NCBI GenBank assembly: GCA_017613085.1
Contig: JAGAEL010000021.1
Span: 1-35,620, forward strand
DNA length: 35,620 nt
Reading direction: 5' to 3'
Origin: Kiritimatiellia bacterium
GTDB lineage: Bacteria; Verrucomicrobiota; Kiritimatiellia; RFP12; UBA1067
Below the pieces are notes generated by a model, which was not told where the DNA came from, made no database searches, and worked only from the letters and a program-made list of their open reading frames with translations. Position 1 is the stretch's first letter. Every line of letters starts with the position of its first letter. Both the position numbers and the translations under genes were made by a program. This document shows, in pieces, positions 2,034 to 20,040 of this stretch.

Positions 2034-4031
2034 TCACCGGCGCGGCGTCACGGCGAGAAACTTGCCGCCTATCCCGTGATGGAAGGTCGCCGCCTTCGCG
2101 TCATGGTTCGCGCTCAACCTGAAATGCGTCAGGTCTTTGGGAAGCTCTTCCATACACAGGAACTTCTGATAACGGTCGCGTTTGAGCGCGCCTCCCGGCT
2201 TGAGCACAACGGTACCCTCCCCTACGACGGAAATCGACTTCACAAACGCTTTCTCCGGATCTGCGGGAAGACGGAGGAAACTCCCCTCCTTCATCTCCAG
2301 GTTTCCCTTAATCTTCATTTCTTCCACGACCGCGAGCGAGCCGTCGAGCCGGACACGGTCGGCGGACAAGGTGTTGACGGCAATCCCGTGGCCGCGTGTG
2401 ATGATGCGGGCGTTGTCCTCGATGTTGACGAGTCCCGCGCCGCGCAGGTCGATGTTCGCTTCTTCCGCGACCGCCCATCCGCCGATCGTGAACGATTTGC
2501 AGACGAATTTCGCGCCCGGCGGAATCGAGGGCAGCGCCCTCCCGGAAACCGTAACCTCCGTCTCTTTCGTAGGCAACACGAAGACCCTTTCCCCCAGGGA
2601 ATTGACACAGAACCAGTTGACCATTTCACCGATGTCGGCGGAGCCAGGTTCTCCGCACCACGAGGCGGTAACGGCGACCGCCCCGCGATAGTTTGCGTTG
2701 AACGTGGCCGCGTAGTTCTTCGATTCGCGCGCCCGGAACGTCCGCGTGAACACGCGCACATCGTCAAGGCAAACGCCATCCGCCCCGCTCGATTCCGTTA
2801 TGCCGTATATGCCGCTGATTCCGCCCGCCATTCCTCCCAACGCGAACACAGGCGCGAACGTGCAATCCGCGCATTTCGACTTCATGTCGATCTTCGCAAC
2901 CGGCCTTCCATCCAGTATAACCATTGCCGTGTCACCGCCACTCGTCGTCAAAATGACGGAATGAGACTTCGACGCCAGATCCGACAAGGGGATTGCCATC
3001 GTCGAAACGGTCGTACACACCTTGCCCCTGCCCGGAAGCGACGCGATGACGTGCGCCGCGAGAACATCCTTCTTGGGTGTCGTCGCGAGAAGCACCGCTT
3101 TCCCGGAACCTTCCTTGGCCGTGCCGAGCGAGGCGATCGCGACATTGCTTTTTTTCGGTAACCGTCCGTGCAACGCAAGTGTCATGTTGCCGTCCGTAAT
3201 CTTGTTCACCCGCCCGTCGGTGATCCCGCGAAGCCACACACCGGACTTGTCCGCCGTATCCTCCGCGATGAGCGGGCCGAGGTTGCAGAACGCATTATCG
3301 TGGCGCAGAACCCCGGACACGGTGCCGTTGTACGTCCACTGGTATACCGGATCGTAGATCGTCTCCATCTGCCGCCACTCCGCGAGGAGTCCGTCGAAGT
3401 CCTTGTCGAACAATTTCTGCCAGGGATTCTTGCCGTACTCCCTGTAGCCCTTCAGGATCTTGTAGATCGTCCCTTCGCCGTAGTTCTGCGTCATGAAGTC
3501 GATGAAGTGGGCACCTTTCACGTATTTGCCGTAGTGCCGTCCGCCGCGCAACGCCCTGTAGCGGAGGTCGAGGGCGTAGGGGGGATTGGAACACCGATGG
3601 TAGTTCACCTTGTAGTTGCGCACCCAGTCCGCCATCGCCTCGGTGAACACGCGGTCGGACCCCATGTCGAGGACGTGCGTCATCTCGTGGCAGAGCAACC
3701 CCATGCCGCCTGTCCCGTCGCCGCCGGGATGCGCCCCCACTTTCCACGTAATCCGCCGCCCCGCCGCGAACGCCGGGTTGCCGCCCTTGGAGGGCGAGAG
3801 GTAGAGGATGATTGTGACATTTTCGTGGGAACGCGAGCGTTCGCTGTCGCCGTAGAGCGCCTTGCAGATCTTCGGGGCCAGGACTTCCATCTGTTCGCGA
3901 ATGTAGCTCTTCTCTCCCCACGTGCGGCACTCCTCCGGTGTGCGGTTGTCCCAGACCACATTCAGTGCCGACGCGCCCGCCGCCATCAAAACGATGGCCG
4001 GCAGAAGAAGTTTATATCGCATCCTTTTCAC
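2034..4031 (-). CDS. Secreted basic-secretory-protein-family metallopeptidase with LamG-like and repeat regions
   Basis: A 665-residue exported protein. Signal peptide at about residues 5-22 (YKLLLPAIVLMAAGASA). The N-terminal domain (about 23-240) has the zincin motif HEMTH at 115-119, followed by FTEAMADWVR near 129-138, as in the basic secretory protein family (PF04450). Residues about 245-460 resemble a LamG/concanavalin-type domain (a DGRPVAKIDMK strand and DDVRVFTRTF). Residues about 520-665 are beta-strand repeats. The GTG start at 4031 overlaps the preceding stop (GTGA). ATG 4022 is the alternative and would remove three residues. It is coupled to the peptidase-GH92 fusion, so both probably act on extracellular glycoprotein. 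Substrate specificity is unknown. Confidence 0.8.
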   Translation of the reverse strand: MKRMRYKLLLPAIVLMAAGASALNVVWDNRTPEECRTWGEKSYIREQMEVLAPKICKALYGDSERSRSHENVTIILYLSPSKGGNPAFAAGRRITWKVGAHPGGDGTGGMGLLCHEMTHVLDMGSDRVFTEAMADWVRNYKVNYHRCSNPPYALDLRYRALRGGRHYGKYVKGAHFIDFMTQNYGEGTIYKILKGYREYGKNPWQKLFDKDFDGLLAEWRQMETIYDPVYQWTYNGTVSGVLRHDNAFCNLGPLIAEDTADKSGVWLRGITDGRVNKITDGNMTLALHGRLPKKSNVAIASLGTAKEGSGKAVLLATTPKKDVLAAHVIASLPGRGKVCTTVSTMAIPLSDLASKSHSVILTTSGGDTAMVILDGRPVAKIDMKSKCADCTFAPVFALGGMAGGISGIYGITESSGADGVCLDDVRVFTRTFRARESKNYAATFNANYRGAVAVTASWCGEPGSADIGEMVNWFCVNSLGERVFVLPTKETEVTVSGRALPSIPPGAKFVCKSFTIGGWAVAEEANIDLRGAGLVNIEDNARIITRGHGIAVNTLSADRVRLDGSLAVVEEMKIKGNLEMKEGSFLRLPADPEKAFVKSISVVGEGTVVLKPGGALKRDRYQKFLCMEELPKDLTHFRLSANHDAKAATFHHGIGGKFLAVTPRR

Positions 4032-6877
4032 GGTTCCGCCTTGAACACGAGTTTACCGCCCTTCATCACGTCCCCGTGGCGGATCCACACGCCGCTGAGC
4101 GCGCGGCCGTCGAAAGCAACAGACTTTGAAACTCCGCCGGGGCACTCCGAAACGACACGGAACATCCGTCCATTGCCGACTTTGAATGAGACCTCCGGCA
4201 TCTGCGCCTCGCCCAGCACGTAGCCCGCGCCGCACGGATCGAACGGATAGAAGCCGAGACACGCGAAGATGTACCACGCGCTCATCTGCCCGCAGTCGTC
4301 GTTTCCGCAGAGTCCGTCCGGCGTGGTGCCGTACTGCGTCTCCATCACCTCGCGGATGTACTTCGCCGCAAGGTCGCGGCGGCCGAGAAGCGAGAAGAAG
4401 TAGATGACGTGGTGGCTCGGCTCGTTGCCGTGGCAGTACTGCCCAATCAGCCCCGTCACGTCGGGCAGCTTGTCCTCGCTCTTGGACGAGTCCTCGTTGA
4501 ACAGCCCCTCAAGGCGCTTCAGGGCTGCGTCCTTCCCGCCGAGCAGCCGGACAAGCAGTTCCGGCGACTGCATGACGTGCCAGTTCCAGTGGAAGGCGTT
4601 GCCCTCCGTGTAGTCGCAGTGGTTGATGTGGCTGATCTTGTACGGGTCGAACGGCTCGCGCCACGCGCCCTTCTTGTTTCTGGCCCGGATGAACCCTGTC
4701 GCCGCGTCGAAGCAGTTCGTCCACGAGAGCGAACGGTCGCGGAAGAACTTCGAGGAACGCTCCTTACCGAGCGCCTCCGCGAAGCGCGCCGCGCAGGCGT
4801 CGTCGTAACAGCTTTCCAGCTGACGCGACACGCTCTCGTCCTTCACCACGTCGCAGGGGTAGTACCCGTACTTGTCGAGAAGGTCGTACCGCGCCTTATG
4901 GCGCCGGCGGTTCTTCGTGAGCGTCGTCCTCACGCATCTCCACGCACGTTCCCAATCCACCCCCTTGAAGCCCTTCAGGTACGCATCGACAATCATCGGC
5001 ACGGAATGTACGCCGATCATGCACTGGTTGTCCCCGCCCCAGAGCGTCCACACGGGCAGGAAGCCGTTCTGGTCGAAGTGCCAGAGCATGGAGTTGATGA
5101 AGTCCGGCACACGTTCCGGCGTGAGGAGCGTGTAGAGCGGACCGGCGGCGCGGTAGGTGTCCCAGCACGAGAACGTTGAATAGACGTTCGGCTCGCCGGC
5201 ATCGGAGATCAGGTTCGGCTGGAAACAGAGATGGTAGATGGCGGTGTAAAGCCCCTTCATCTGCTCGTCCGTACCCTTCGCCTCGACGCGGGAGAGGATC
5301 GCGCGCCACTTCGCCTGGGTCTGCGCGAGGACGCCGTCGAAGTCCCATCCCGGAATCTCCGCTTCGATGTTGTGGCGCGCGCCCTCCGCCGATGAGCGGG
5401 AGAGCGAGACCTTCAGGTACAGGACATCCCCGGCCTTCGTGTCGAAGGTGTATGCGGTCTTCTCGATCCGGTCGCCCCCGACGCGCTGCACGACGCGCGA
5501 GGTGGCCGGCTCCTTCGACACCTCCCACGCGAACCAGTAGTCGTGGTCCGGCCAGCCGTCGCGGAACACGTGCCCCGCCACCTTCCTGTCCTTCATCGGC
5601 GCGAAATCGACGGACTGGACCGCCCCGAACGCCCACGACGGATCGAACAGCAGATGCGCCGGCGCCTTGAGGTACGTGATCCTGTAGAGCGCGACGCGCT
5701 CCGTGCAGGTCATCTCCACCCTCACGCCCGTGCCGAGCGTGACGGCGTAGTAGCCCGGCGACGCCTTTTCGGTATTCTTGTCGATCTTCTGGAAGCAGTC
5801 GCGCCGCCACGCCGCGTTGAAGTCCCCCGCGAACGGCATGAAGCCGACGTCCGTGAACTCGCTGCACCCCGTCCCGCTCAGGTGGTTCTGCGAGAAACGT
5901 TCGATGCGTTCGTCCCCGTACTGGTAGGCGGAACAATGTTCCCATCCGGCGTGGCTCGTGTCGGGGCCGGGCTGCACCATGCCGAAGGGACACGCCGCCG
6001 CCGGCGTCGTGTGCCCCGTTCCCTGCGTACCGATGAACGGATCCACCCACTTGAGGATGTCTCCTGCGGAGGCGGAGGTCACAACCTTCTCCGCCGCACC
6101 GCCGCGCAGGAACCTCTTCCACTCCGCCGCGAGCGACTGGCGCGACTTGCCCGTGAACTTCCGCCAGACATACTCGCCGTATTTCCCCTCGCGGCATATT
6201 TTGTTGAGTTTCATCACGAAGTCGCGGTCATACTTGCAGACCACGTAATCGAGAAACGCGGCGGTGATCCTGTATGAATCGTCGTGCCTGGGATTCTCCC
6301 GCGCCATGTCGTAAACGCCCTTGCGTCCCTCCGCGCCCTCGTAATTGCACCAGCGCACCCAATCGACAATGCCTTCTAGGAGCCAGCCCGGAGGCCACTT
6401 GTACGGATCGGCACGTCCTGGCGCGGGACGATAGTCCTGGACGACGTGCGCGAATTCGTGGACGCACGCGCCCTTGACCTCATGCGGAATCTCCGCCGCG
6501 AACTTCATACTGAGCGTGATGTGCTTCTCCTCCGTGCAAGCCTCCGCCGCGCCATCGTAGTTGGGATCCAGCGTCAGTACGACCTCGCCGCGAGTCCACT
6601 TCGCCCCCTTGCCGTCAAGAAGTTCCACAACCTTGCCCGCATACGCCTCAAGGGCGGGCTTCAGCTCCTTCTCCGCCCACTCCGCCTTTTCCGGCGCTTT
6701 GGACGAGTCGATCCTGAATATCCCCGGCTGCGAGGGCGAAGACGTACCCCGCGTTGCGGCGTCTGCGGCGTTCGCTTCGCACAGGGGATATGCCACTGCG
6801 CACATCGCGGCAACCGCCGCGCACATCAACGTCAACGTATGCATCATCTTGTTCTTTCTCGTGCCTTGCCCTTCCAT
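4028..6877 (-). CDS. Secreted fusion: basic-secretory-protein peptidase plus GH92 alpha-mannosidase
   Basis: A 949-residue protein. ATG 6877 has AAGGAGG six bases upstream; the frame is open further upstream but without a ribosome site. A signal peptide spans about residues 11-38 (MMHTLTLMCAAVAAMCAVAY core). Residues 50-260 form a PF04450-type peptidase domain with HEFAH at 140-144 and EGIVDWVRW near 168-176. From about residue 272 to the end is a complete GH92 domain: WVDPFIGTQGTGHT, GDNQCMIGVHSVP, the NEPSHH motif carrying the presumed general-acid Glu, and GNDDCGQMSAW with the acidic pair. GH92 enzymes are calcium-dependent exo-alpha-mannosidases. The fusion suggests coupled proteolysis and demannosylation of glycoprotein. 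Both domains look catalytically intact. Confidence 0.9.
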   Translation of the reverse strand: MEGQGTRKNKMMHTLTLMCAAVAAMCAVAYPLCEANAADAATRGTSSPSQPGIFRIDSSKAPEKAEWAEKELKPALEAYAGKVVELLDGKGAKWTRGEVVLTLDPNYDGAAEACTEEKHITLSMKFAAEIPHEVKGACVHEFAHVVQDYRPAPGRADPYKWPPGWLLEGIVDWVRWCNYEGAEGRKGVYDMARENPRHDDSYRITAAFLDYVVCKYDRDFVMKLNKICREGKYGEYVWRKFTGKSRQSLAAEWKRFLRGGAAEKVVTSASAGDILKWVDPFIGTQGTGHTTPAAACPFGMVQPGPDTSHAGWEHCSAYQYGDERIERFSQNHLSGTGCSEFTDVGFMPFAGDFNAAWRRDCFQKIDKNTEKASPGYYAVTLGTGVRVEMTCTERVALYRITYLKAPAHLLFDPSWAFGAVQSVDFAPMKDRKVAGHVFRDGWPDHDYWFAWEVSKEPATSRVVQRVGGDRIEKTAYTFDTKAGDVLYLKVSLSRSSAEGARHNIEAEIPGWDFDGVLAQTQAKWRAILSRVEAKGTDEQMKGLYTAIYHLCFQPNLISDAGEPNVYSTFSCWDTYRAAGPLYTLLTPERVPDFINSMLWHFDQNGFLPVWTLWGGDNQCMIGVHSVPMIVDAYLKGFKGVDWERAWRCVRTTLTKNRRRHKARYDLLDKYGYYPCDVVKDESVSRQLESCYDDACAARFAEALGKERSSKFFRDRSLSWTNCFDAATGFIRARNKKGAWREPFDPYKISHINHCDYTEGNAFHWNWHVMQSPELLVRLLGGKDAALKRLEGLFNEDSSKSEDKLPDVTGLIGQYCHGNEPSHHVIYFFSLLGRRDLAAKYIREVMETQYGTTPDGLCGNDDCGQMSAWYIFACLGFYPFDPCGAGYVLGEAQMPEVSFKVGNGRMFRVVSECPGGVSKSVAFDGRALSGVWIRHGDVMKGGKLVFKAEP

Positions 6878-7254: not shown

Positions 7255-9462
7255 TTACTCGATTCGCGGAGGTGTTCCCGTCATCTCGAACACGAGTTCG
7301 CCGCCCTCCAGAATGTCCTCGTGGCGGATCGTAAACCCTTCAAGCGGCACACCGTTGCGCGCAACCGACTTGACGTACTTATTCTCGGCGGAAAGGTTCT
7401 TTGCGAGGACGGTGAACGTTTTCCCGGTGTACGTCGGAAGGTGGAGAACGATCTTCGGCAGTTGCGGTGCGCCGAGTACATACTCGCCGCTCGCGGGATT
7501 CATCGGATAGAAGCCCATCGCGGAGAAAAGATACCACGCGCTCATCTGCCCGCAGTCGTCGTTGCCGCAAAGTCCGTCCGGTTTGTTCACGTAGAATTTC
7601 TCGAACACGTCCCTCACAAGTTCCGCCTGGCGCGCCTCGCGTCCGGCATACCGCAAGAGATAGACGACGTGGTGGCTCGGTTCGTTGCCGTGGCAGTACT
7701 GCCCCATCAGGCCGGTGACGTCGTCGCACGTGCCGGTCTCGGATTCGTCGGCTTCGAGCGTGAAAAGGCGGCAGAGCCTTTCGCCGGCGATCTCCTTTCC
7801 GCCGACGGCTTCGATCAGCGCCTCCGGCTCGTGCAGGACATGCCACGTCCATTGCCAGGCGTTTCCCTCCGTAAAGTCGCTCCCCGTCCCGGCATTGCGC
7901 CCGAGGGCGAGCGGATTGAACGGCGTCGTCCAGTTTCCCCCTGTGTCGCGTCCGCGCACGAAATGCGTCTCCGGATCCACCACGTTCCGCCAGTTACGGG
8001 AACGCTTCAGGAAGAACGCCGCGTCTTCCGTAAGACCGAGGCGATCCGCCATCCTTGCCGCGCACCAGTCGTCATAACAACATTCAAGGAGACGCGAGAC
8101 GGACTCGCTTGTCACGATGTCGTTCGGATAGTACCCGTACCGGTCGAGCGCCGGCCAGTCTTCAAGGATGCGCCCCTTGTGGAGCGTGGTCAGCGAATCC
8201 TTGATGCCCGCGAACGCCGCCTCCCAGAAGGCCCGGTCGTGCGAATGGCGCGAAAAAGCGTCCGCCCCGCCGGGCGCGGCGGGACGCGAAACCGCCTCCG
8301 TCTTCAGGAACCAATCGACGATGACCGGGACGGAATGTGTGCCAATCATACACTGGTTATCGCGCCCCATGAGCGTCCAGATGGGTAGAAAGCCTGCCGC
8401 CTTCCGGTGCTCCAGCATGGTCTCGATGAAGCCGTCGCCCATTTCTGCGGAAATCAATGTGTGGAGCGGATGCGCCGCACGGAACGTGTCCCAAAGCGAC
8501 AACGTCGAATAGTAACGCCCCCCGGGGGCGACGTGTACCTCGCCGTCCGCGCCGCGATAGCGTCCGTCCACGTCCGCGATGTTCGCCGGCTGGATCAGCA
8601 GCCTGTAGAGCGCGGAATAGAAGTTCGTCTTCTCGTCGTCCGTCCCTTCGGCATCCATCCGTGAAAGTTGGCGTTCCCATTCGGTCTCCGCCGCCGTGCG
8701 CACAGCGTCGAAATCGAACCCTGGACACTCCGCGTCCATGTTACGCCGCGCCCCTTCTTCGTCCACCAGCGAATACCCGACCTTGATCACCAGCGGTTCA
8801 TCCCCGCCCGCTCCAAGCGGCAACACGAATCGCGGCGCCTTCTCGTCCGGGGAAAGCGGATCGAGGGAGACCGGCGCGAGGAACTCGCGGTTGAATTCGA
8901 TGACGAACGAATACCGGCGCTCCACCCAGTGCTTTCGCACGTTGGTTCCGGTCACGAACCGCTTTCCATGCACCCGTGCCGTGCTGGAAAGGATCGTCTT
9001 GGCGAGAACCTTCCCGCCGATCCCCCACTGGCAGTCCACGAGCAGGTTCATCGACGCGGCGCCCGCGCCCGTGAAGCGATAGACGGCGGTATGCGCGGCG
9101 GTTGTGGCCTCCACGCGCACGTCGCAGTCGTCGAGCGTGACGGCATAGTAACCGGGCGTACAGACCTGTGTCTCCTTTCGGAAGGCGGACGAGACGCCGG
9201 GCGAAGGTTCACCCGCGAACGGCATGATCCGGATGTCGCCGAGATCGCCGCATCCCGTACCGCTCAAGTGCGTTTGGGAGAAACCGAGAATCCTGTCGTC
9301 CTCGTACCGGTATCCGGCGCAGTAGCGGTATCCTTCGCGGCCCGTGTCCGGCGAAGGCTGTACAAGCCCGAACGGATACGTCGCGCCCGGAAACGTATGC
9401 CCGTCGCCGCCCGATCCGATCTCCGGCCTAACCCATTTTATGCGTCCACATTCTCCGTTCAT
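7255..9462 (-). CDS. GH92 family alpha-mannosidase without signal peptide
   Basis: A 735-residue GH92 glycoside hydrolase. It is close to the usual single-domain length and covers the family from GHTFPGATYPFGLVQPSPDT near the start to the C-terminal beta-sandwich. Key motifs: GRDNQCMIGTHSVPVIVDW, NEPSHH (E about 594) and GNDDCGQMSAW (about 633-643). I chose ATG 9462 because GGAGG lies six bases upstream. A TTG at 9468 is also in frame but abuts that site. The N-terminus has no hydrophobic segment, so the enzyme is predicted to be cytoplasmic, unlike the secreted paralogue at 4028-6877. The last residues (TPPRIE) are encoded at the edge of a repeat. It probably removes alpha-mannose from imported oligosaccharides; linkage is unknown. 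Confidence 0.92.
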   Translation of the reverse strand: MNGECGRIKWVRPEIGSGGDGHTFPGATYPFGLVQPSPDTGREGYRYCAGYRYEDDRILGFSQTHLSGTGCGDLGDIRIMPFAGEPSPGVSSAFRKETQVCTPGYYAVTLDDCDVRVEATTAAHTAVYRFTGAGAASMNLLVDCQWGIGGKVLAKTILSSTARVHGKRFVTGTNVRKHWVERRYSFVIEFNREFLAPVSLDPLSPDEKAPRFVLPLGAGGDEPLVIKVGYSLVDEEGARRNMDAECPGFDFDAVRTAAETEWERQLSRMDAEGTDDEKTNFYSALYRLLIQPANIADVDGRYRGADGEVHVAPGGRYYSTLSLWDTFRAAHPLHTLISAEMGDGFIETMLEHRKAAGFLPIWTLMGRDNQCMIGTHSVPVIVDWFLKTEAVSRPAAPGGADAFSRHSHDRAFWEAAFAGIKDSLTTLHKGRILEDWPALDRYGYYPNDIVTSESVSRLLECCYDDWCAARMADRLGLTEDAAFFLKRSRNWRNVVDPETHFVRGRDTGGNWTTPFNPLALGRNAGTGSDFTEGNAWQWTWHVLHEPEALIEAVGGKEIAGERLCRLFTLEADESETGTCDDVTGLMGQYCHGNEPSHHVVYLLRYAGREARQAELVRDVFEKFYVNKPDGLCGNDDCGQMSAWYLFSAMGFYPMNPASGEYVLGAPQLPKIVLHLPTYTGKTFTVLAKNLSAENKYVKSVARNGVPLEGFTIRHEDILEGGELVFEMTGTPPRIE

Positions 9463-9741: not shown

Positions 9742-10593
9742 TCAACAATTTCCGATAAGCACGTGTTTCAGTTTACAGCGGGCGAGGTCGGCAAGACGAT
9801 GGATGGTCGCGACCGGCGTAGGCTGTGCGTCCTGCATTCGGAAACGAGGGAAGAAGCGCGTGACATGGAACGGGATTCCCGGCGAGACGGAGGCTATGAA
9901 CGAAGCGACGGCGTCGATGTCGTCTTCCTTGTCATTGCGTCCCGGCACGACGAGCGTCGTGACTTCGACATGGCACCCGGCTTCGTGAAACGTACGGATC
10001 GTCCGGCACACGGCGGAAAAGTCGCCCCCTACCCAATCGTAGTATTCCTGCGAGGGGCCCTTCAAATCGATATTCGCCGCGTCGATAAGCGGTGCAAGTT
10101 CTTCGACAACCGACGTCTCGGCGCATCCGTTCGAGACAAGCACGTTGAGCATCCCACGGGCATGGATTTCACGTGCGCAGTCGCGCACAAACTCCCAGCC
10201 GACCAACGGTTCGTTGTAGGTGTAGGCAAGACCGATGTTCCCGCGCCCGTTCCGGATCTTGAACGCGAGATCGGCGAGTTCTCCCGGCGTCGTCAGGTAT
10301 GCGACCGGCGCCTCCTCGCCGCCACATTGCGAAATCGAATCGTTCTGGCAGAACGGGCACCGGAGGTTGCAGCCGAAACTGCCGACGGAAAGCACGTTCG
10401 CGCCGGGATGGAAAAAGGCGAGCGGTTTCTTCTCGACCGGATCGACCGCGACCGATGTCAGCTTCCCATAGTTCGCCGCGACGACACGTCCGCCCTCCGC
10501 CTTGCGCGCCCGGCAGAAACCGGTCGCGCCTTCCCGGAGGCGGCAACGGCGGGGGCACGTCCCGCAGACCGTTTCTTCCGTCCGGTCATTCAT
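9742..10593 (-). CDS. amrS: AmmeMemoRadiSam system radical SAM enzyme AmrS
   Basis: A 283-residue radical SAM protein. An N-terminal CGTCPRRCRL...GFCRAR cysteine cluster (residues 10-29) is followed by the SAM iron-sulfur motif C75-x3-C79-x2-C82 (FGCNLRCPFCQN). Further family features are TYNEPLVGWEF, NIDLKG and RFFPRFRMQDAQPTP near the C-terminus. It resembles pyruvate-formate-lyase-activating enzymes but matches the AmrS subgroup, which occurs with MEMO1 and AMMECR1. Here it overlaps the gene for a MEMO1-AMMECR1 fusion by eight bases, which confirms the system. The start is ATG 10593, with GAGGT upstream. The biochemical role of the system is not settled; radical modification of a metabolite or protein is usually proposed. 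Confidence 0.93.
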   Translation of the reverse strand: MNDRTEETVCGTCPRRCRLREGATGFCRARKAEGGRVVAANYGKLTSVAVDPVEKKPLAFFHPGANVLSVGSFGCNLRCPFCQNDSISQCGGEEAPVAYLTTPGELADLAFKIRNGRGNIGLAYTYNEPLVGWEFVRDCAREIHARGMLNVLVSNGCAETSVVEELAPLIDAANIDLKGPSQEYYDWVGGDFSAVCRTIRTFHEAGCHVEVTTLVVPGRNDKEDDIDAVASFIASVSPGIPFHVTRFFPRFRMQDAQPTPVATIHRLADLARCKLKHVLIGNC

Positions 10594-12022
10594 GGAAGAC
10601 CTCTGCGCGGAACGTCGCGAATTTCGCGCCGTCGCGCCAGGCATCCGCCGGAAGACCGGCCTTGCGGGCGAGATGGGAAAGCGTTGACGGCAAGTCCCAC
10701 CTCTGTTCCGGCGCGACCTGCGGCAGAAACACCGCGAACCGGCCGTTCTTCTCGAAGGTCATGCCGTCCCGTCCGAGCACGATCTCCCGCCAGGACGCGA
10801 CCGGCGTCGGCGGCGTAAGCGCGGAAATCTCGATCCGGAGGCTGGCGAGTTCGTTCCCCGTCACAGGCAGGAAGCGGGGATCGTGGAGCGCGGCATCGAC
10901 CGCCCGGCCGACGACGGCCTCCACCAAGGAACGCCTGGGAAGGATCTCACCGATACAACCGCGCAACGCATCCGTCCTGCGATCCTTCAGCGTCACGAAC
11001 ACCCCCATCTTGTGAAGCGCGGCAGGGGGGATGTGTTTCGACGCGGTCGGCTGCGCGAAACGGCGCGTCCCGCCCCCGCAAACGGCGTTTTCAATCGTTT
11101 CGCGGGCGACGCGCAGGAGAAACGCCCTGACTTCGGCGTTCAACACCGCCTCGGGTTCCCCGCTCCATTCGGCGCGCCCCGCCGCCGCGACGTAGCACAC
11201 GAACCGCGAAAAGTCCCGTCCCTTGTCCGACGAAGTGGTATAGGCAAGCCGCGTAAACGGGGCCTTCCATTGGAACGCCCGCAACGCAAGCTCGATCGGG
11301 ATGCGTCCGCAGATTGTCGCCCCCGTCCGTTGCATCAACGCGGCGAAGCCATCCGCGTCGCCCTTGGAAATGAGCGTGAACGCCTCGTCATCGACGACTG
11401 CGACCTTGGCGCGGACCGCCTCGCCGCCGTCCGTCCCGTAAGGCGTGTAGGAAAAATCGTCGCCGTAGTGGGTGAAATCGGAGGAGATCACCAGCAGCGT
11501 TTCCGCATCCATCAAACGCGACAACGCTCGAACGCACATCGCCATCTGGTCCGCGCCGAACGTCCCCACCACAATCGGCGCGATGGCGAAGCCGCCGCCA
11601 AGGGCAAACTGGAGAAGCGGGTATTCAATCTGCACGGCGTGTTCCACCGCGTGAACCCGGTCTTTCCGGGAAACGGGGGCGATAAGCGCGAGGCGGTCGA
11701 TCCATTCCCTGTCGATCTTGATTTCGCCAAGGGGCGTGGAGACCGCGCCCGACTCCGGCACGACAAGGCGGTTCTCGACCCAGGCGTGATGGCTCGGGGC
11801 GAGCAGGACGACGCGCTTGAACCCCGCGCCGCGCACGAGCCGCACGGCCCGCCAGGCCGTTTCGCCGGAATACGCCCATCCCGCGTGGGGAAGGAGCAGG
11901 ACGTTCGGCTTCTCCACCTTGCCGTCGGGAGGGGTATGCGATTCCCACGACTCGGCAAGCGCGCGAATCTCCTGGGCGTCAGCCGGGTACCAGGTTCCGG
12001 CGATTGTGCTTTCCAGTGCCAT
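10586..12022 (-). CDS. AmmeMemoRadiSam fusion protein (MEMO1/AmrB plus AMMECR1/AmrA)
   Basis: A 478-residue two-domain protein. Residues 1-285 are MEMO1-like: STIAGTWYPAD at the start, LLLPHAGWAYSG (H46), APSHHAW (H78-H79), and SSDFTHYGDDFSYTPYG later. These supply the conserved metal-binding His/Asp set of the dioxygenase-like fold. Residues 293-478 are AMMECR1-like, with the signature LRGCIGEI at about 353-360 and the conserved GxxVFLPQVAPEQ segment. ATG 12022 has AAGGAG six bases upstream. The stop overlaps amrS, giving the full three-component system in two genes. It is transcribed with a secreted GH123-like hydrolase and surface-repeat genes, an unusual context that does not by itself reveal function. 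Confidence 0.95.
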   Translation of the reverse strand: MALESTIAGTWYPADAQEIRALAESWESHTPPDGKVEKPNVLLLPHAGWAYSGETAWRAVRLVRGAGFKRVVLLAPSHHAWVENRLVVPESGAVSTPLGEIKIDREWIDRLALIAPVSRKDRVHAVEHAVQIEYPLLQFALGGGFAIAPIVVGTFGADQMAMCVRALSRLMDAETLLVISSDFTHYGDDFSYTPYGTDGGEAVRAKVAVVDDEAFTLISKGDADGFAALMQRTGATICGRIPIELALRAFQWKAPFTRLAYTTSSDKGRDFSRFVCYVAAAGRAEWSGEPEAVLNAEVRAFLLRVARETIENAVCGGGTRRFAQPTASKHIPPAALHKMGVFVTLKDRRTDALRGCIGEILPRRSLVEAVVGRAVDAALHDPRFLPVTGNELASLRIEISALTPPTPVASWREIVLGRDGMTFEKNGRFAVFLPQVAPEQRWDLPSTLSHLARKAGLPADAWRDGAKFATFRAEVFHE

Positions 12023-14346: not shown

Positions 14347-14910
14347 TTAGCGCGTCTTGACCGGGGCACGGCGGGAAGAGGACGGCCAGCTCAGATTGAA
14401 GAACGGGCACCACCAGCCGTGGCGGTTCCGGTTCAGGAGGCCGATCTGGAGCATGTGGCTGTCGTTGTAGGCGGTGTCGTCGTCGATGATGTTCACCAAC
14501 CCGATCTGGAATCCGTTGCCTCGATCCGTGCGGTTGCCCAGCACGGCGATCTGGACGCCGGACATGGTGTCGCTCCCGTTGATCAGCCCGGAAAGCTGGA
14601 GCCCGTTCATCTCGCGTGAACGCGCCCAGAGGCCGTCCAGCTGAACACCGTTCATCACCAGCGTCTCGGAACCGAACAGTCCGAATCCGAACCCGTTCAA
14701 CTCCGGCTGGGCGCGCTCATAGTTTTCGTACTTATCGCCCGCGAACGGGAACAAATGGGCCGCCTGAAGCATAACCCCGTCAATCCGGCAGTCCGAGTTG
14801 ATCCCGTCGTTCAGGAACCAGAAGGCGAACGCGGCATCGTCGGCGCGCACATTCGTCGAGGACATCAACACGGCGCCGAGGAGGACGCCCAACATCTTCG
14901 TAATACGCAT
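14347..14910 (-). CDS. Secreted surface-repeat protein (GVQL/GLxN repeats)
   Basis: A 187-residue exported protein. ATG 14910 is preceded by AAAGG; an in-frame ATG at 14931 lacks a ribosome site. The signal peptide is at about residues 1-22 (ITKMLGVLLGAVLMSS). The body is built from short beta-type repeats, for example MNGVQLDGLWARSREMNGLQ, then LSGLINGSDTMSGVQIAVLG, as in the LA_2272-like surface-repeat proteins known from Leptospira and others. The C-terminus is LQIGLLNRNRHGWWCPFFNL. It is a paralogue of the gene immediately upstream (14947-15717), sharing the repeats and the HGWWCP ending. The repeats probably form a beta-solenoid exposed at the cell surface. No enzymatic motif is visible. 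Confidence 0.75.
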   Translation of the reverse strand: MRITKMLGVLLGAVLMSSTNVRADDAAFAFWFLNDGINSDCRIDGVMLQAAHLFPFAGDKYENYERAQPELNGFGFGLFGSETLVMNGVQLDGLWARSREMNGLQLSGLINGSDTMSGVQIAVLGNRTDRGNGFQIGLVNIIDDDTAYNDSHMLQIGLLNRNRHGWWCPFFNLSWPSSSRRAPVKTR

Positions 14911-14946
14911 GGTAAACAACCTTTCTTTCATCAGCGTGAAAACACG

Positions 14947-15717
14947 TTACTTGGACATTTCGACCGCATGGCGTTTGGAGGGCCAGCTGAGGTTGATGAC
15001 CGGGCACCACCAGCCGTGGTGGTTCCGGTTCAACAAACCGATCTGCAGGAGTTTGCTCGGATAAGCGGCATCCAGCCCCGTGTCGTCGCTTCCGCCGCAC
15101 AGGTTCACCAGCCCGATCTGGACGCCGCGCCCGGTTTTGACCCGGTTCACCGCGCCGGCGGCCTGAAGCCCCGCCATGTCCTCGCTCGAATTGACCAGCC
15201 CCGCGAGCTGGACGCCGCGCATCCGGGAGGTGACGCCGTTCGCGACACCCGCGAGCTGGACGCCGCGCATCCGGTCGCCGCACCCGTTGGCGAAACCGGA
15301 AAGTTGCAAGCCGTCGAGTTCGCGGCTGCGGCTCCAGAGGCCGCCGATCTGGACGCCGTCGAAATCCAGCGTTTCGGAACCCCACAGCCCGATACCGAGT
15401 CCGGCGACGCCCGGCTGCGCGAACTCCTCGTCCGCATAATTCCCCCCGGCAATCGGGATCGGGCGGAAAAGTTTCAGCATCAGGCCGTTCACCTTGACAT
15501 CCGGACAGAACCCGTCGTAGGCGAGCCAGAGGGAAAAGACGGATGTTTCCTCGCCCGGCTCGGCAAAGGTTTTCTCCGCCGGAGTCGATTGCACCGCCGG
15601 CGGCGGTGTCGCCGGCTCCTGAATGACAACGGGCTTCTCCCCTTCAACCCCGCAAGCCGACATGGCCGACAAAGCGACCGTAGCGGCGAGACTCGTAAGC
15701 ATCATGGATAGACGCAT
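14947..15717 (-). CDS. Surface-repeat lipoprotein, paralogue of the downstream gene
   Basis: A 256-residue protein starting at ATG 15717 (AAGGAG ten bases upstream). The N-terminus ends in a lipobox-like AMSAC with C22 as the lipid-attachment residue, followed by a proline- and glutamate-rich linker (to about residue 60). Successive repeats such as RMRGVQLAGVANGVTS and RMRGVQLAGLVNSSED follow, ending LQIGLLNRNHHGWWCPVINL. It has two to three more repeat units than its neighbour at 14347-14910, consistent with tandem duplication and repeat-number change. It is the first gene of the five-gene operon running to amrS. Likely an outer-membrane-anchored surface structure; partner unknown. Confidence 0.78.
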   Translation of the reverse strand: MRLSMMLTSLAATVALSAMSACGVEGEKPVVIQEPATPPPAVQSTPAEKTFAEPGEETSVFSLWLAYDGFCPDVKVNGLMLKLFRPIPIAGGNYADEEFAQPGVAGLGIGLWGSETLDFDGVQIGGLWSRSRELDGLQLSGFANGCGDRMRGVQLAGVANGVTSRMRGVQLAGLVNSSEDMAGLQAAGAVNRVKTGRGVQIGLVNLCGGSDDTGLDAAYPSKLLQIGLLNRNHHGWWCPVINLSWPSKRHAVEMSK

Positions 15718-15768
15718 AAAGCACACACTCCTTACTGGATGAACACGTAACGTACAAAAACAGAAACT

Positions 15769-15797
15769 AGTATGCACGAAAAAGCCCCCCGCGTCAA
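15769..15797 (-). promoter_or_regulatory. Promoter of the surface-repeat / AmmeMemoRadiSam operon
   Basis: Minus strand TTGACG, 17-base spacer, CATACT, 52 bases upstream of ATG 15717. It is the best sigma-70-like site for the run of five closely spaced genes down to 9742. A 22-bp element shared with the 18838 promoter lies about 28 bases further upstream (15826-15847). Confidence 0.6.
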
Positions 15798-15825
15798 TTC
15801 AAATGAAGCGACAAAAATCTTCCTT

Positions 15826-16080
15826 GGCGCATCCGCGAATCGTGCAATCCGTCCTTTATCTCACGCGGAGGAACGGGCGGGAGGGTCGCGCCCCGTCGCG
15901 ACCGAGTGTCGGATGTCGGGTGTCGGGTGTCGCCTGTCGTGCGGGAGGGCGCGTGTCCCCACGCGCCGCATGGGAACGGACGCGACAAAGCGCGTCCCTC
16001 CCCTTCCTTGCTCCTTGTAAAGGAGACAACTAAGACAACCGAAGACAACCTTTTTGTTGTCCCTTGTTGTCCTTGTTGTC
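15826..16080 (+). repeat. Mosaic palindromic intergenic repeat, copy 3
   Basis: The 421-base gap between 15718 and 16138 holds a 22-bp element (15826-15847, identical at 18897-18918). After it come module A (GGGAGGGTCGCGCCCC...), module B (four TGTCGG-type repeats), module C (two hairpins, ending CGCGTCCCTCCCC) and a GACAAC/GTTGTC array. A CGCGGAG-rich tail follows to about 16125. The promoter of the 15717 gene occupies the left part of the gap. No coding region is supported. Confidence 0.85.
16025..16080. repeat. Symmetrical GACAAC / GTTGTC triple-stem hairpin
   Basis: GACAAC at 16025, 16034 and 16044 faces GTTGTC at 16056, 16066 and 16075. All three pairs share the same centre, giving three 6-bp stems separated by small symmetrical internal loops around CTTTTT. 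It is related to the array at 7065-7127. Confidence 0.85.
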
Positions 16081-16138
16081 GTTTTATCTTTCGCGGAGAG
16101 GCAGAGAGCGCGGAGCGAGAAGATAGGGAGGTAATCTG

Positions 16139-16309
16139 TCAAGGACCATGGATAAACCAAGCAGCGAGTCCGTATTCCCTTCTCCCCGACCGCCCGTACG
16201 CGCATCCGCTGTAACCCCGCGTTCCTCCGTGACAAGACGGCAAACAACGCCACGCCGATGCACAGCCTGTCACAATGCACAGCCAAAGTTTTTTTCCGGA
16301 AAATGTCAT
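16139..16309 (-). pseudogene. Decayed N-terminal copy of the 16383-17957 membrane protein
   Basis: Read from ATG 16309 the product begins MTFSGKKLWLCIVTGCA, nearly identical to residues 9-22 of the gene at 16383-17957 (SKKLWLCMVTGCAL). A net four-base loss then shifts the frame, giving unrelated residues and a TGA at 16139-16141. Nucleotide identity continues through the shift: about 64 bases at 16240-16303 match 17863-17930, including the segment encoding LFAVL. Everything after the membrane anchor is gone. A 13-codon ORF (16310-16351, AGGTGG upstream) ends directly at the start codon. It is probably the remnant of a tandem paralogue; a functional 56-residue peptide is unlikely. Confidence 0.75.
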
Positions 16310-16382
16310 TTATTCATCCCCGCGGTCCCCGACATATCGTCTGCAAACCATTTATTGTCACCACCTATATTCACGAAAGTTT

Positions 16383-17957
16383 TCATCGCATTGCACTCAA
16401 CTTAAGGCAATCGAACAGCCGCCAGGCGGCGACGTCCATTTCATGGTCAATCAAGTACAGTACGCCGTTCGTGTAGACACATCCGCATCCGCCTCCTGGC
16501 GGCATCAGCCCCGATAATCGATCAAAGGGGAGTCTGGAGATGGCGTCACTAGGAACGGGAACGCTACCCATTCTAATTCCATTGCGCCAAACCTCCGGAG
16601 GGGCCGTAAAGAAATATACGGTCCCCCCTCGTTCTGTAACTTTCCATGTCGAGTTATCTGTCGTTGCTGGAATCGCCTTGAATGCCTGTGAAAGCGTTCG
16701 AACGGGATGATTACCACGTTTGCGGGATGATGGCGTAACCCTAGCCTCCGTTCCATACCGTTCAAACTTGTACCTTACTATGCCGTCGTCGCCAAATACG
16801 CGGCTGAGTTCCCAAAACCGGAATGTCTTACCTTTCCAGAAAGAGCGGCATCTCTGCGCAATCGCCTCGATCGCCGCCCTCCTTGAAAGGCCGGACAAGT
16901 CGATCTCACCGAAATCCGATGTCACAAGGTCTTTTCCCGACTCTTCAAGGAGACAACATTCGGTGGTAAATGTCCTTCGGTAGGCAGGATCTATTCTTCC
17001 CGCAACACAATTGGCGATATAGGATTCAAAGCGGATTGATTCAGACCGGTCTTCGGGGCGGTCTGGCAAATGCCAAAGATGCGGCATCCCTGTTTCGATC
17101 TCCCTGTCGAAGAATGTTTCCTTGTCAGACACAATCAATTTCGCCAGTTGAAAGGCGGGCGACTCCGTTAATGCGACCAAATAGAGGAATCGATTCGAGT
17201 ATATGCAAACATCCGCGCCATCGGTAAGGCGCCCCGCGAGTCTGCCGAGCGCGAAAAATTCCCCTGCGTTCGGAGAGACTGCGGAAGCCAGTACGTGATA
17301 CTCGTTGAAAACTTCGGGCGGAGCCGCGATGACGCAGACATTCGTCCCGCAAGGCACGACACGCGGTAGGAGGGGTTCTTCGTCATGCAAAACGGAAGAA
17401 CAGACCGCGGACCAAAGGTCGGCGGTCTGGAAAAGATCGCGGGACGGGACGGCAAAGCCGCGTTCGGCGGCCAGGAAATCCCCGTTCCTTCGGACGTCGT
17501 ACCCGAATCCCCCGCCGGGAAGGATCCGCCTTGACAACCTGAAGAAATGAAAAGCAATATTCGGCCATTCAACCCGGCATCGGCGCAACAGACGACCAAG
17601 GCAGACATCCACCGGGGCTTTTTCACGGGGAAGTGAAAAAGCCTTGCGGAAACGCCAGTTCATCGAAATATCGGAATCATTGTTTTCGCTGAACAGCGCC
17701 TTCCTGAAAACCGTATCGATCCTCCCCTCCGCGCTTTCCTCCAAATACCGGCGGATGGAATCGAAACCGGGATTGGAGGTAGACGTACAGAGAACCGTGT
17801 CGACAGCCGGGACGGGAGGGGCCGACGGATGCGGCTTCGCCGCCCGGTCCACGTTCCACCGGAACAAGACGGCAAACAAGGCCACACCAAACAATGCACA
17901 GCCTGTCACCATGCACAGCCAAAGTTTTTTACTATCAATCGTCACTTCTTCTGCCAT
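16383..17957 (-). CDS. Membrane-anchored protein with an internal tandem duplication, unknown family
   Basis: A 524-residue protein. It has a short cytoplasmic N-terminus, one membrane segment at about 11-32 (KLWLCMVTGCALFGVALFAV), then a large extracytoplasmic part made of two homologous modules. Module 1 (about 65-300) and module 2 (about 325-520) share RRYLEESAEGRIDTVFRKA versus ESYIANCVAGRIDPAYRRT, an RxFW/FRLSR stretch, APPEV followed about 30 residues later by a GRLAG or DRLSG turn, and CIYSNRFLYLV versus CVYTNGVLYLI. I do not recognise the family. ATG 17957 lies inside the end of the preceding gene (16-base overlap), so translation is coupled. GC content is lower than in flanking operons. 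A remnant paralogue lies directly downstream. Confidence 0.75.
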   Translation of the reverse strand: MAEEVTIDSKKLWLCMVTGCALFGVALFAVLFRWNVDRAAKPHPSAPPVPAVDTVLCTSTSNPGFDSIRRYLEESAEGRIDTVFRKALFSENNDSDISMNWRFRKAFSLPREKAPVDVCLGRLLRRCRVEWPNIAFHFFRLSRRILPGGGFGYDVRRNGDFLAAERGFAVPSRDLFQTADLWSAVCSSVLHDEEPLLPRVVPCGTNVCVIAAPPEVFNEYHVLASAVSPNAGEFFALGRLAGRLTDGADVCIYSNRFLYLVALTESPAFQLAKLIVSDKETFFDREIETGMPHLWHLPDRPEDRSESIRFESYIANCVAGRIDPAYRRTFTTECCLLEESGKDLVTSDFGEIDLSGLSRRAAIEAIAQRCRSFWKGKTFRFWELSRVFGDDGIVRYKFERYGTEARVTPSSRKRGNHPVRTLSQAFKAIPATTDNSTWKVTERGGTVYFFTAPPEVWRNGIRMGSVPVPSDAISRLPFDRLSGLMPPGGGCGCVYTNGVLYLIDHEMDVAAWRLFDCLKLSAMR

Positions 17958-18838
17958 ACATCGAACTCGAACAATTCTTTCCCCTTCGGCGAGATACGGA
18001 ACCGGTTCCTCCCGGTCCACGAGTCCTTCACGAGGATTTCATGGCGGCAGCGTATTTCGCGGGCTTTCGCCTGAAGGTCGCGGACAAACTCCCGGGCCTC
18101 GGCCACGGTCAACGTCTCCACGCCGCGCCTCGCCGCCTCCGGGTTGTCCTCGATCCGCAGATACCACTGATACCGGCCTTTTTTCAAGGCAAGCGACCTC
18201 CCCGTCGCGAGAATGCAGGTTTCGGGCTCTAACCGCTCGACTTGAACTTTCCCGAAAATTGCCGGCAGGAATCTGCACGGGTAACCATAGCAATTTAAGT
18301 TTTCGAAATAATGCCGCCAGCGGCCGGAATGGCAAACTTCGCCCAAGATATGCAGCTGGCGGGCCACTTCAGACTGACGAGGATGTTCTTTCCGCAAATC
18401 ATCTTCAGACAGAAGACAACATGACCCACAAGCCTCTTTTGCCTTTTTATGATTGGCATTTTTGACAAGGTCGACAACATCGCTTTCGACTTGGACGACA
18501 ACCGCAATTTCCTTGAAACCTTCCTTCCGCAGCCGTTCGACAAGACGCCCCGTTTCCGTGGCGCCCACGCCTTCGGGAAGGAAAACCGTCACGGGACGTT
18601 CAAATTCAACCGCGCTCGGAATAAGAAACCCCCTGCGCAAAATTTCCCATTTTTCCTCGTTACTGATTAACTCGTAAGGAATGACATCCGATTCGCGGAT
18701 ACCCTTGTCCCCCGAATACCGAAAGGTGTAACGACAAATTGCCAATACAAGCAAGACAAGAAACGACAGGGAACATCCTAGGAACAAAACGAAACATAGA
18801 CGCCGCCTCGTTATTTTTTTGAAAAATTCAAATCGCAT
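17942..18838 (-). CDS. Membrane-anchored hypothetical protein
   Basis: A 298-residue protein of unknown family. Basic N-terminus (FFKKITRRR), one membrane helix at about residues 13-34 (RLCFVLFLGCSLSFLVLLVL), then a soluble domain. The domain includes SAVEFERPVTVFLPEGVGAT (about 75-94), a GFKEIAVVVQVESDVVDLV segment, a cluster of cysteines (KEACGSCCLL) and a C-terminal region with WYLRIEDNPEAARRGVETL. It is coupled to the duplicated membrane protein that follows and shares its lower GC, so the two may form an inner-membrane complex. ATG 18838 has no ribosome site and lies where transcription should start from the promoter at 18845-18873, suggesting a leaderless mRNA. Confidence 0.7.
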   Translation of the reverse strand: MRFEFFKKITRRRLCFVLFLGCSLSFLVLLVLAICRYTFRYSGDKGIRESDVIPYELISNEEKWEILRRGFLIPSAVEFERPVTVFLPEGVGATETGRLVERLRKEGFKEIAVVVQVESDVVDLVKNANHKKAKEACGSCCLLSEDDLRKEHPRQSEVARQLHILGEVCHSGRWRHYFENLNCYGYPCRFLPAIFGKVQVERLEPETCILATGRSLALKKGRYQWYLRIEDNPEAARRGVETLTVAEAREFVRDLQAKAREIRCRHEILVKDSWTGRNRFRISPKGKELFEFDVWQKK

Positions 18839-18844
18839 GGGGGT

Positions 18845-18873
18845 AGTTTAACACCGCCTTCTTGTTCAGACAA
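18845..18873 (-). promoter_or_regulatory. Promoter predicted to give a leaderless transcript
   Basis: Minus strand TTGTCT, 17-base spacer, TAAACT. Only six bases (ACCCCC) separate the -10 from ATG 18838, placing the expected start of transcription at the start codon. Confidence 0.55.
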
Positions 18874-18896
18874 GTTGGAAATTGGATGAATGCACG

Positions 18897-19130
18897 GGCG
18901 CATCCGCGAATCGTGCAAACAAGTGCCACGGAGAACAGGGGGTGATCGGGAGGGACGCGCTTTGTCGCGTCCGTTCCCATGCGGCGCGTGAGGACACGCG
19001 CCCTCCCGCACGACAGGCGACATTCGACATTCGGTCGCGACGGGGCGCGACCCTCCCGATTGTTCCTCCGCCTCTCCGGATGAAACAAAAGACGGACGGG
19101 ACGAAGCCCGTCCCTCCCGGAACGAAAAAT
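18897..19130 (-). repeat. Mosaic palindromic intergenic repeat, copy 4
   Basis: Part of the 473-base gap 18839-19311. It begins with the 22-bp element at 18897-18918, then (inverted relative to copy 1) modules D (CCACGGAGAACAGGG), C, B and A, ending CCCTCCC at 19057. Next comes a GGACGGG/CCCGTCC hairpin at about 19094-19113. On the minus strand this hairpin is followed by GTCTTTTG and could weakly terminate transcription. A CTCTGCG/CTCCGCG-rich stretch (19165-19208) precedes copy 5. No coding region is supported in the gap. Confidence 0.85.
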
Positions 19131-19212
19131 TAGCCGTGTAGAGCGGGTAGAACGTGTAGGGCGTTGCACGCTCTGCGCCCTCCGCGTCTCTGCGCCTCTG
19201 CGTGAGATAATA

Positions 19213-19297
19213 GACGCGCTTTGTCGCGTCCGTTCCCATGCGGCGCGTGGGGACACGCGACCCTCCCGCACGACAGGCGACACCCGACATCCGATCC
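19213..19297 (-). repeat. Mosaic palindromic intergenic repeat, copy 5 (modules C and B)
   Basis: Starts GACGCGCTTTGTCGCGTCCG and continues through the second hairpin of module C and module B. It matches copy 4 closely but lacks modules D and A. It ends 15 bases before the cutC stop. Confidence 0.8.
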
Positions 19298-19311
19298 ATG
19301 GAACGGGGATT

Positions 19312-20040
19312 TCAGCTGACGGCGGCGCGGGCGGAACGAATACGGGCGGCATCCGTGCGCCAAAGGGAATACTCGTTCAAACCGGGAAATCCCATCGGGA
19401 CACCGTCGCGCCGGAACGTCATTCCGCTGTCGAGTGTGATCTTGCCCGACATGTGGAAACTCGTGCAGCCGGTAGAGACCCGCATTTCCCGGATCGCGTC
19501 GGCATCGACACCCGCGCCGACCAGGATCTCGATCCGTCCCGCAGCCCGTCGCCGGAGTTCGGCGATCAATGCCGCGCCTAGCCGGCAGGACGCCTGCTGT
19601 CCAGAGGTGAGGATGGTGTCAAAACCGAGCGAGACGGCCTCTTCAAGCGCGGCGAAGGGATCGGAACAGAGATCGAATGCCCGGTGGAGCGTACAACGCA
19701 TCTCCCCGGCCGTCTCCACCATCTGTTTCAAAAACGGGAGGTCGAGTCGCCCGTCAGGCAGCAACGCGCCGGTCACGATGCCTTCCGCACCGTGCCCGCG
19801 CCAGTGCCGCGCCTCTGCCAGCATCATTTCTTTTTCAGGCTGCGTGTAGAGGAAGTCGCCGAATCGCGGGCGGACCATGACGCGCATCGGGAGCGCGACG
19901 CGGCGCCTGACCGCCTCGAACAGCGCGGGCGTCGGCGAGAGTCCGCCGATGACGAGCGCGGAACAAAGTTCCAACCGCTCCGCCCCACCCTCCTGCGCGG
20001 CGACGGCAGATTCCACGGAATCGATGCATACTTCCAGCAT
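19312..20040 (-). CDS. cutC: CutC family protein
   Basis: A 242-residue TIM-barrel protein covering the whole CutC family. Motifs: the N-terminal LEVCIDSVESAVAAQEGGAERLEL, GGLSPTP, MVRPRFGDFLY, GAEGIVTGALLPDGRLD, HRAFDL, ILTSGQQASC and the C-terminal FHMSGK. CutC was first linked to copper homeostasis in Escherichia coli; that role is disputed and its reaction remains uncertain. Start ATG 20040 lies three bases after the stop of the transglutaminase-like lipoprotein gene, so the two are probably co-transcribed. No copper-related neighbour is present. Length is standard and no residue looks unusual. Confidence 0.95.
   Translation of the reverse strand: MLEVCIDSVESAVAAQEGGAERLELCSALVIGGLSPTPALFEAVRRRVALPMRVMVRPRFGDFLYTQPEKEMMLAEARHWRGHGAEGIVTGALLPDGRLDLPFLKQMVETAGEMRCTLHRAFDLCSDPFAALEEAVSLGFDTILTSGQQASCRLGAALIAELRRRAAGRIEILVGAGVDADAIREMRVSTGCTSFHMSGKITLDSGMTFRRDGVPMGFPGLNEYSLWRTDAARIRSARAAVS

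What the first reader, a model, noticed from the sequence alone, without database searches (positions are those of the whole stretch)
15826..18918. Unknown two-protein membrane module bounded by 22-bp direct repeats, with a decayed third copy
Two coupled, single-helix membrane proteins of unrecognised families sit between identical 22-mers at 15826-15847 and 18897-18918. Their lower GC differs from both neighbouring operons. One contains two homologous halves, and a frameshifted N-terminal copy of it follows downstream. Repeated duplication plus boundary repeats suggest an acquired, fast-evolving module.
Basis: partly seen in the sequence, partly recalled or inferred. Interest (0 to 1): 0.55.

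Follow-up and report, generated by a model that had tools for sequence, protein, structure and literature searches.

The report
Orphan membrane gene pair, transposon-end repeats
Two rare membrane-protein genes in an uncultured bacterium, whose only close copy sits behind a toxin-type gene, lie between two unrelated scraps of a small, genome-wide jumping element, so the matching repeats around them are not their borders.

Summary
The sequence observation holds: identical 22-mers at 15826-15847 and 18897-18918, two coupled low-GC genes (B 17942-18838, A 16383-17957, minus strand), A built of two homologous halves, and an A-like N-terminal remnant downstream. The boundary reading fails. The repeat occurs 87 times (<=3 mismatches) in the 2.43 Mb assembly; close neighbours are convergent in 15 of 16 cases, and 16 convergent pairs together show a 9-bp target duplication well above chance. 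It is the terminal inverted repeat of a miniature transposable element (MITE) family. The window's two copies are different kinds of end, from two separate, oppositely oriented, degraded elements. The only paralog of the pair has no such repeat on its 5.5 kb contig.

That paralog (C199) starts 9 bp behind an Rhs-core ORF with a Peptidase_M76 tip, one of only two Rhs cores found in the assembly. I therefore read A/B as an orphan of an Rhs effector locus, most likely immunity-type envelope proteins; this is inferred and untested. Outside the own genome A was found in one congener only and B credibly nowhere, in 345 class genomes. The downstream remnant is not a decayed copy of A itself: its tail matches the C199 variant.

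The parts
17942..18838 (-). gene B, 298 aa, one N-terminal hydrophobic helix, no family match
   Evidence: paralog B' on C199
16383..17957 (-). gene A from the likely ATG, 524 aa (ORF as listed runs to a GTG at 18020 inside B); one N-terminal helix, two homologous halves
   Evidence: homolog in G001
17121..17789 (-). first repeated half of A (approximate limits)
16386..17057 (-). second repeated half of A (approximate limits); model mean pLDDT 69, weak secretin N0/N1-like resemblance
17945..18259 (-). codons 194-298 of B, nearly identical to C199, with a sharp border: recent recombination or gene conversion
   Evidence: residues 194-298: 302 of 315 nt identical; residues 1-193: 254 of 504 aligned nt
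16217..16320 (-). broken N-terminal remnant of an A-type gene
16168..16226 (-). tail of that remnant, shared with C199 (52 nt at 96%), absent from A
15825..15847 (+). terminal inverted repeat, end type a, of MITE island 1
15825..16130 (.). MITE island 1 (approximate right limit; no right-hand end found), made of repeats found at many other loci
18896..18918 (+). terminal inverted repeat, end type b, of MITE island 2
18896..19296 (.). MITE island 2, opposite orientation to island 1; type-a inner sequence at 19195-19216 but no terminal repeat after it
7255..7275 (-). further, weak (5 mismatches) type-b end overlapping the 3' end of the second GH92 gene

Best explanation
Two unrelated things lie side by side. 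(1) The 22-mers are the terminal inverted repeats of a MITE family: non-autonomous elements, inserted between genes with a 9-bp target duplication by a transposase acting in trans that I did not find. The window holds degraded parts of two oppositely oriented copies, one behind the module and one in front of it. (2) B and A are an orphan gene pair of an Rhs polymorphic-toxin locus. By position in the C199 paralog (Rhs core, Peptidase_M76 tip, 9 bp, B', A') they are most likely membrane-anchored proteins that protect the cell against, or work with, an Rhs tip, displaced here from the Rhs gene. Recombination through the near-identical 3' end of B reshuffles them, and the broken A-type 5' end left downstream is what displacement of an earlier A variant would leave. 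Shown: repeat family, target duplications, Rhs linkage of the paralog, mosaic B, shared tail. Inferred: immunity-type function, displacement history.
For: MITE: 87 copies at <=3 mismatches, 0 for the reversed control; of 16 neighbour pairs under 600 bp apart, 15 convergent, 1 direct, 0 divergent; 9-bp duplication in 16 convergent pairs (15 own genome, 1 in G036): 77 of 144 positions identical, largest of 20000 permutations 68, 3 pairs perfect; outer GG in 63 of 82 sites, inner-end types a 21, b 29, c 22, unassigned 10; 71 of 75 sites outside predicted coding DNA although 72% of that DNA is called coding. The window's ends are type a and type b in the same direction, i.e. two elements. Rhs link: B' starts 9 bp after an ORF with Rhs_assc_core (59.8 bits, cut-off 32.5) and Peptidase_M76 (37.7 bits, cut-off 25.2); only 2 Rhs cores were found in the assembly, both on C199, and the only B/A paralog is there. 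GC3 of A and B (0.59) is nearer to the four C199 genes measured (0.62-0.73) than to the 13 window genes (0.73-0.87). Mosaic B with dN 0.62, dS 3.27 in residues 1-193 and dN 0.04, dS 0.06 in 194-298. Shared tail.
Against: No Rhs sequence was found in the window (tblastn of three C199 proteins). The only other A homolog (G001, 33%) has no B in its genome, and I saw no Rhs gene among the ORFs listed for 12.0 of its contig's 12.3 kb (by eye; no Rhs search was run on G001). A single linkage (one contig, cut through A', in an assembly 67% complete) carries the Rhs argument. A is large for an immunity protein (recalled). No immunity family matched in Pfam, NCBIfam, PHROGs or PADLOC. Nine of the 16 pairs in the duplication test match at 5 of 9 or fewer. 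No transposase was found near the repeats in what was looked at.
Confidence: 0.5

Rival explanations
1. A and B are a small envelope complex unrelated to toxins. A would be a bitopic protein with two secretin-N0/N1-like periplasmic units (as in secretin or TonB-signalling proteins), B its partner; the place behind an Rhs gene on C199 would be chance or shared island life.
For: Foldseek's top rows for the A half model are secretin N-terminal domains (GspD 3ezj E 0.085, XcpQ, EscC), and GspD rows also appear in the second look (3oss_D Z 6.3, 62 residues, rmsd 3.4). No Rhs gene was seen beside the G001 homolog (by eye).
Against: None of these matches is significant: 0 at E <= 0.001, and ribosome-biogenesis chains score as high (9n78 Z 6.4, 64 residues, rmsd 3.3), with KH-domain rows not far below. 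The profile search of PDB sequences gave no secretin among its 8 rows up to E 10. Pfam gave no secretin or STN match (one member matched Pro_Al_protease at E 0.055).
Confidence: 0.3
2. One reading: an acquired module carried or bounded by the 22-mers, for example a composite element mobilised by its outer terminal repeats.
For: Islands of the same MITE family do flank the module on both sides, and its composition is foreign.
Against: Island 1 lies inside and island 2 outside the 22-mer interval; no right-hand terminal repeat was found for either island even at 8 mismatches; none of the 87 copies is on C199, and none of G001's three at <=2 mismatches is on its contig C77.
Confidence: 0.08
3. 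The 22-mer is a selected regulatory site (operator or terminator), not a transposon end.
For: 71 of 75 sites outside predicted coding DNA; the outer neighbour shows its 5' end in 43 of 65 cases. The bare palindrome in L094 folds well (z -9.6).
Against: 9-bp target duplications, convergent pairing, and copy number of 71 against 0-7 in the 59 other genomes at <=2 mismatches. The two bare palindromes come from loci that are 94-98% identical anyway.
Confidence: 0.07

Closest known systems
Bacterial MITEs (Correia elements, ERIC, RUP, Chunjie)
   Same: Short non-coding elements with terminal inverted repeats, target duplications that fade with age, dozens of copies, mostly intergenic, sometimes nested (review PMC10969869, passages seen)
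   Different: 22-23 bp terminal repeat with 9-bp duplication, three inner-end types in this genome, GC-rich interiors sharing repeats with many other loci (the review calls MITEs typically AT-rich); no parent insertion sequence found
Rhs polymorphic-toxin loci with orphan tips and immunity genes (recalled)
   Same: On C199: Rhs gene, membrane protein, a second Rhs-core fragment with another tip, then B' and A'; mosaic genes with conserved and variable parts
   Different: No immunity family matched; two downstream genes, both with an N-terminal hydrophobic segment; the window copy has no Rhs gene
Secretin N0/N1 (GspD, XcpQ) periplasmic domains
   Same: Top Foldseek rows for the A half
   Different: Not significant, no sequence match, no barrel domain

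Membership tests
MITE | terminal inverted repeats at both ends | tested here: met
   15 of 16 close neighbour pairs convergent in the own genome; the window's own two copies keep one end each
MITE | target-site duplication | tested here: met
   9 bp, 77 of 144 positions against a permutation maximum of 68 in 20000; clear (7 of 9 or more) in 7 of 16 pairs
MITE | short, many copies, no room for a transposase gene inside | tested here: met
   outer spans of the 15 convergent pairs 52-403 bp; 87 end sites
MITE | derived from or moved by a parent insertion sequence | tested here: inconclusive
   no transposase among 10 flanking proteins scanned; three wider convergent pairs seen in own-genome loci, the ORFs of only one of them listed and none searched
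Rhs-associated immunity protein | gene directly behind an Rhs toxin tip | tested here: met
   met for the C199 paralog; no Rhs found beside the window pair
Rhs-associated immunity protein | neutralises the tip | not testable with these tools
   needs a co-expression assay
Rhs-associated immunity protein | match to a known immunity family (helpful, not required) | tested here: inconclusive
   no match in Pfam, NCBIfam or PADLOC; one non-significant unnamed PHROG (E 0.33) for B'
Secretin N0/N1-like domain | fold match | tested here: inconclusive
   top rows but E 0.085 and Z 6.3, tied with unrelated rows
Composite transposon bounded by the 22-mers | matching inward-facing ends outside both sides of the module | tested here: not met
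   the second 22-mer has the same direction as the first and lies at the module's edge, with its island outside

The most novel reading that the evidence does not exclude
The same end sequence (GGGCGCATCCGCGAATCGTGCA and near variants) serves, with quite different inner parts, in six genera of one uncultured family and is about tenfold or more amplified in this species. This may reflect a host-encoded transposase acting in trans on any DNA with these ends, a DDE counterpart of the RAYT/REPIN system (recalled), with the islands as its intergenic clients. The B/A pair would then be a new class of two-gene Rhs immunity with tandem secretin-like domains.
Probability: 0.08. Interest if true: 0.6.

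Novelty: new member of a known kind. Interest (0 to 1): 0.3.

Why it matters
It separates a false module border from a real mobile-element family that shapes intergenic DNA in an uncultured lineage, and it gives a testable place (behind an Rhs tip) for two protein families that the profile libraries searched do not recognise. The general lesson is that identical direct repeats around a gene pair can be ends of two different elements.

Tried and rejected
Module border by 22-mers: rejected. Empty-site test: CutC found in 2 of 4 genus genomes, own and G003; in the 18 kb around it in G003 the other 15 window proteins tested gave no match, so no empty site. Scan of genome contigs with A: no relative. 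Viral contigs with A and B profiles: none; B in phages and A in plasmids: none; A in phages and B in plasmids were not run. Terminal repeat, exact 20 bases, in viral contigs: none. Weak hits rejected as chance: G164 and G341 for A (E 0.008 and 0.005, stops inside, N-terminal region only), G167 for B (E 0.0014, inside a large ORF that looks like a glycosidase by eye), G084 for B (E 0.004, two stops). Structure of B: mean pLDDT 39.7, not used. A half model: best of five 69, others 36-61, so fold rows are hints only; BFVD gave none at E <= 0.001. Rfam on 14500-20000: no match up to E 1. Promoter and terminator scan: 3 and 8 found against 1.5 and 5.5 in shuffles, not informative. The bare 40-bp palindrome shared by L094 and L099 seemed to show selection, but the loci are 94-98% identical over their matching stretches. 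Exact conservation of the end sequence in named genomes is partly an artefact of searching for exact matches. Literature, listings only, papers not opened: 'miniature inverted-repeat transposable' with 'verrucomicrobiota' 2 papers, 'kiritimatiell' with 'inverted repeat' 0, with 'insertion sequence' 4; no title is about such elements in this group. This does not prove absence in print. The 9-bp length and offset were the best of a grid, so the permutation figure is somewhat optimistic; slid by 1 to 3 bases the total is 29-43.
Full report
What is there. On the minus strand two genes overlap: B (18838 to 17942, 298 aa) and A (stop at 16383). The listed A start (GTG, 18020) lies inside B; the ATG at 17957 gives 524 aa and a 16-base overlap, as in translationally coupled genes. 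Each has one N-terminal hydrophobic segment. A's two halves are homologous (26% identity), and the same two-half layout is kept in the G001 homolog. GC3 is 0.59 for both, against 0.73-0.87 for the 13 other window genes measured.

The 22-mers. In the assembly that holds the window (2,426,471 bases, 206 contigs, 67% complete) the 21-base core occurs 87 times at up to 3 mismatches, 46 forward and 41 reverse; the reversed control gives 0. Seventy-five of these 87 sites are in the loci I fetched; 12 were not fetched. Those loci hold 82 sites at up to 5 mismatches, of which the 7 with 4-5 mismatches include doubtful ones, such as two inside window genes. Sixteen neighbour pairs lie under 600 bp apart: 15 convergent, 1 direct, 0 divergent. 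The outer dinucleotide is GG in 63 of 82. With GG counted as part of the end, the 9 bases outside both ends agree at 77 of 144 positions in 16 convergent pairs (15 from the own genome, 1 from G036), more than in any of 20000 permutations (maximum 68). By pair: 9 of 9 three times, 8 once, 7 three times, 5 or fewer nine times. Loss of the duplication with age is what a MITE review describes (PMC10969869, passages). Of the 75 sites at up to 3 mismatches, 71 lie outside coding DNA called with a simple codon model trained on 13 window genes, in DNA that is 72% coding by the same model; that model does not call A or B, so it misses atypical genes.

Three inner sequences follow the terminal repeat: a (21 sites), b (29), c (22), unassigned 10. 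In 12 of the 15 convergent pairs both ends could be typed, and in all 12 they differ. The window's 15825-15847 is a type-a end and 18896-18918 a type-b end, both pointing right. They are thus left ends of two elements in opposite orientation. This also explains the inverted 82-nt match between 15921-16002 and 18948-19029 (96%) and the type-a inner sequence at 19195-19216 (I9). Neither has a recognisable opposite end up to 8 mismatches between 14500 and 20000. In 60 genomes searched at up to 2 mismatches (own included) 11 had the repeat, all among 37 of the same family, none among 23 of other families; own 71 copies, the other ten 1 to 7 each. An exact 20-base search of named genomes gave 16 loci in records labelled Kiritimatiellae (sheep and yak rumen), Verrucomicrobia, Lentisphaerae or just uncultured bacterium.

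Origin of the pair. The own genome holds one more copy, at the end of contig C199: B' (226-1071) and the first part of A'. Nine bases before B' ends an ORF with the Rhs-associated core (TIGR03696, 59.8 bits) and a Peptidase_M76 tip (37.7 bits). Before that come a 237-aa protein with a hydrophobic stretch by eye and a longer Rhs ORF. These two ORFs carry the only Rhs cores found in the assembly. None of the 87 repeat copies is on C199. B and B' agree at 254 of 504 aligned nt in residues 1-193 and 302 of 315 in residues 194-298, a sharp change that points to recent recombination. The broken A-type 5' end at 16217-16320 continues into a tail found only on C199 among the roughly 219 kb examined; those loci were mostly chosen for carrying the 22-mer, so this is no genome-wide count.

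Spread. A profile of A found in 345 class genomes the own genome and G001 (33% identity; no B; between an AI-2E-like transporter and a threonine-synthase-like gene by eye), plus two chance-level rows; a profile of B found the own genome and one chance-level row. No match in the viral, phage or plasmid searches that were run. So the module is not conserved in place, and no known phage or plasmid carrier was seen.

How it works. For the repeat: transposition in trans, strongly supported in its traces, with the enzyme unknown. For B and A: position behind an Rhs tip, membrane anchoring, foreign composition and mosaic structure fit displaced immunity-type genes; this rests on one contig and is inference. 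A's weak likeness to secretin N0/N1 domains is the main pointer to a rival envelope role. I put the combined reading at 0.5, the envelope reading near 0.3.

Noticed in passing
L028 (G000 C199) 1081-2481 and 3323-5503, minus strand: Rhs locus with a longer Rhs ORF, a 237-aa protein with a hydrophobic stretch, and a second Rhs-core fragment with a Peptidase_M76 tip bearing HELVH
   Followed up: partly
window 9742-12022: Radical SAM gene next to a Memo-AMMECR1 fusion, an AmmeMemoRadiSam-like pair (name recalled)
   Followed up: no
window 14347-15777: Two neighbouring genes sharing repeats; the second matches LA_2272 surface repeats (NF047436, 43 bits, cut-off 25); the first was not scanned against NCBIfam
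   Followed up: partly
window 15865-16002, 18945-19119, 19213-19296: GC-rich inverted intergenic repeats shared by many loci and apparently nested in the MITE islands
   Followed up: partly
window 7255-7275: Weak type-b MITE end overlapping the 3' end of the second GH92 gene
   Followed up: no
G019, G020 and G032: GGGCATCCGCAAATCGTGCAA recurs in identical form in three genomes of two other genera; L078 showed no transposase by eye
   Followed up: partly
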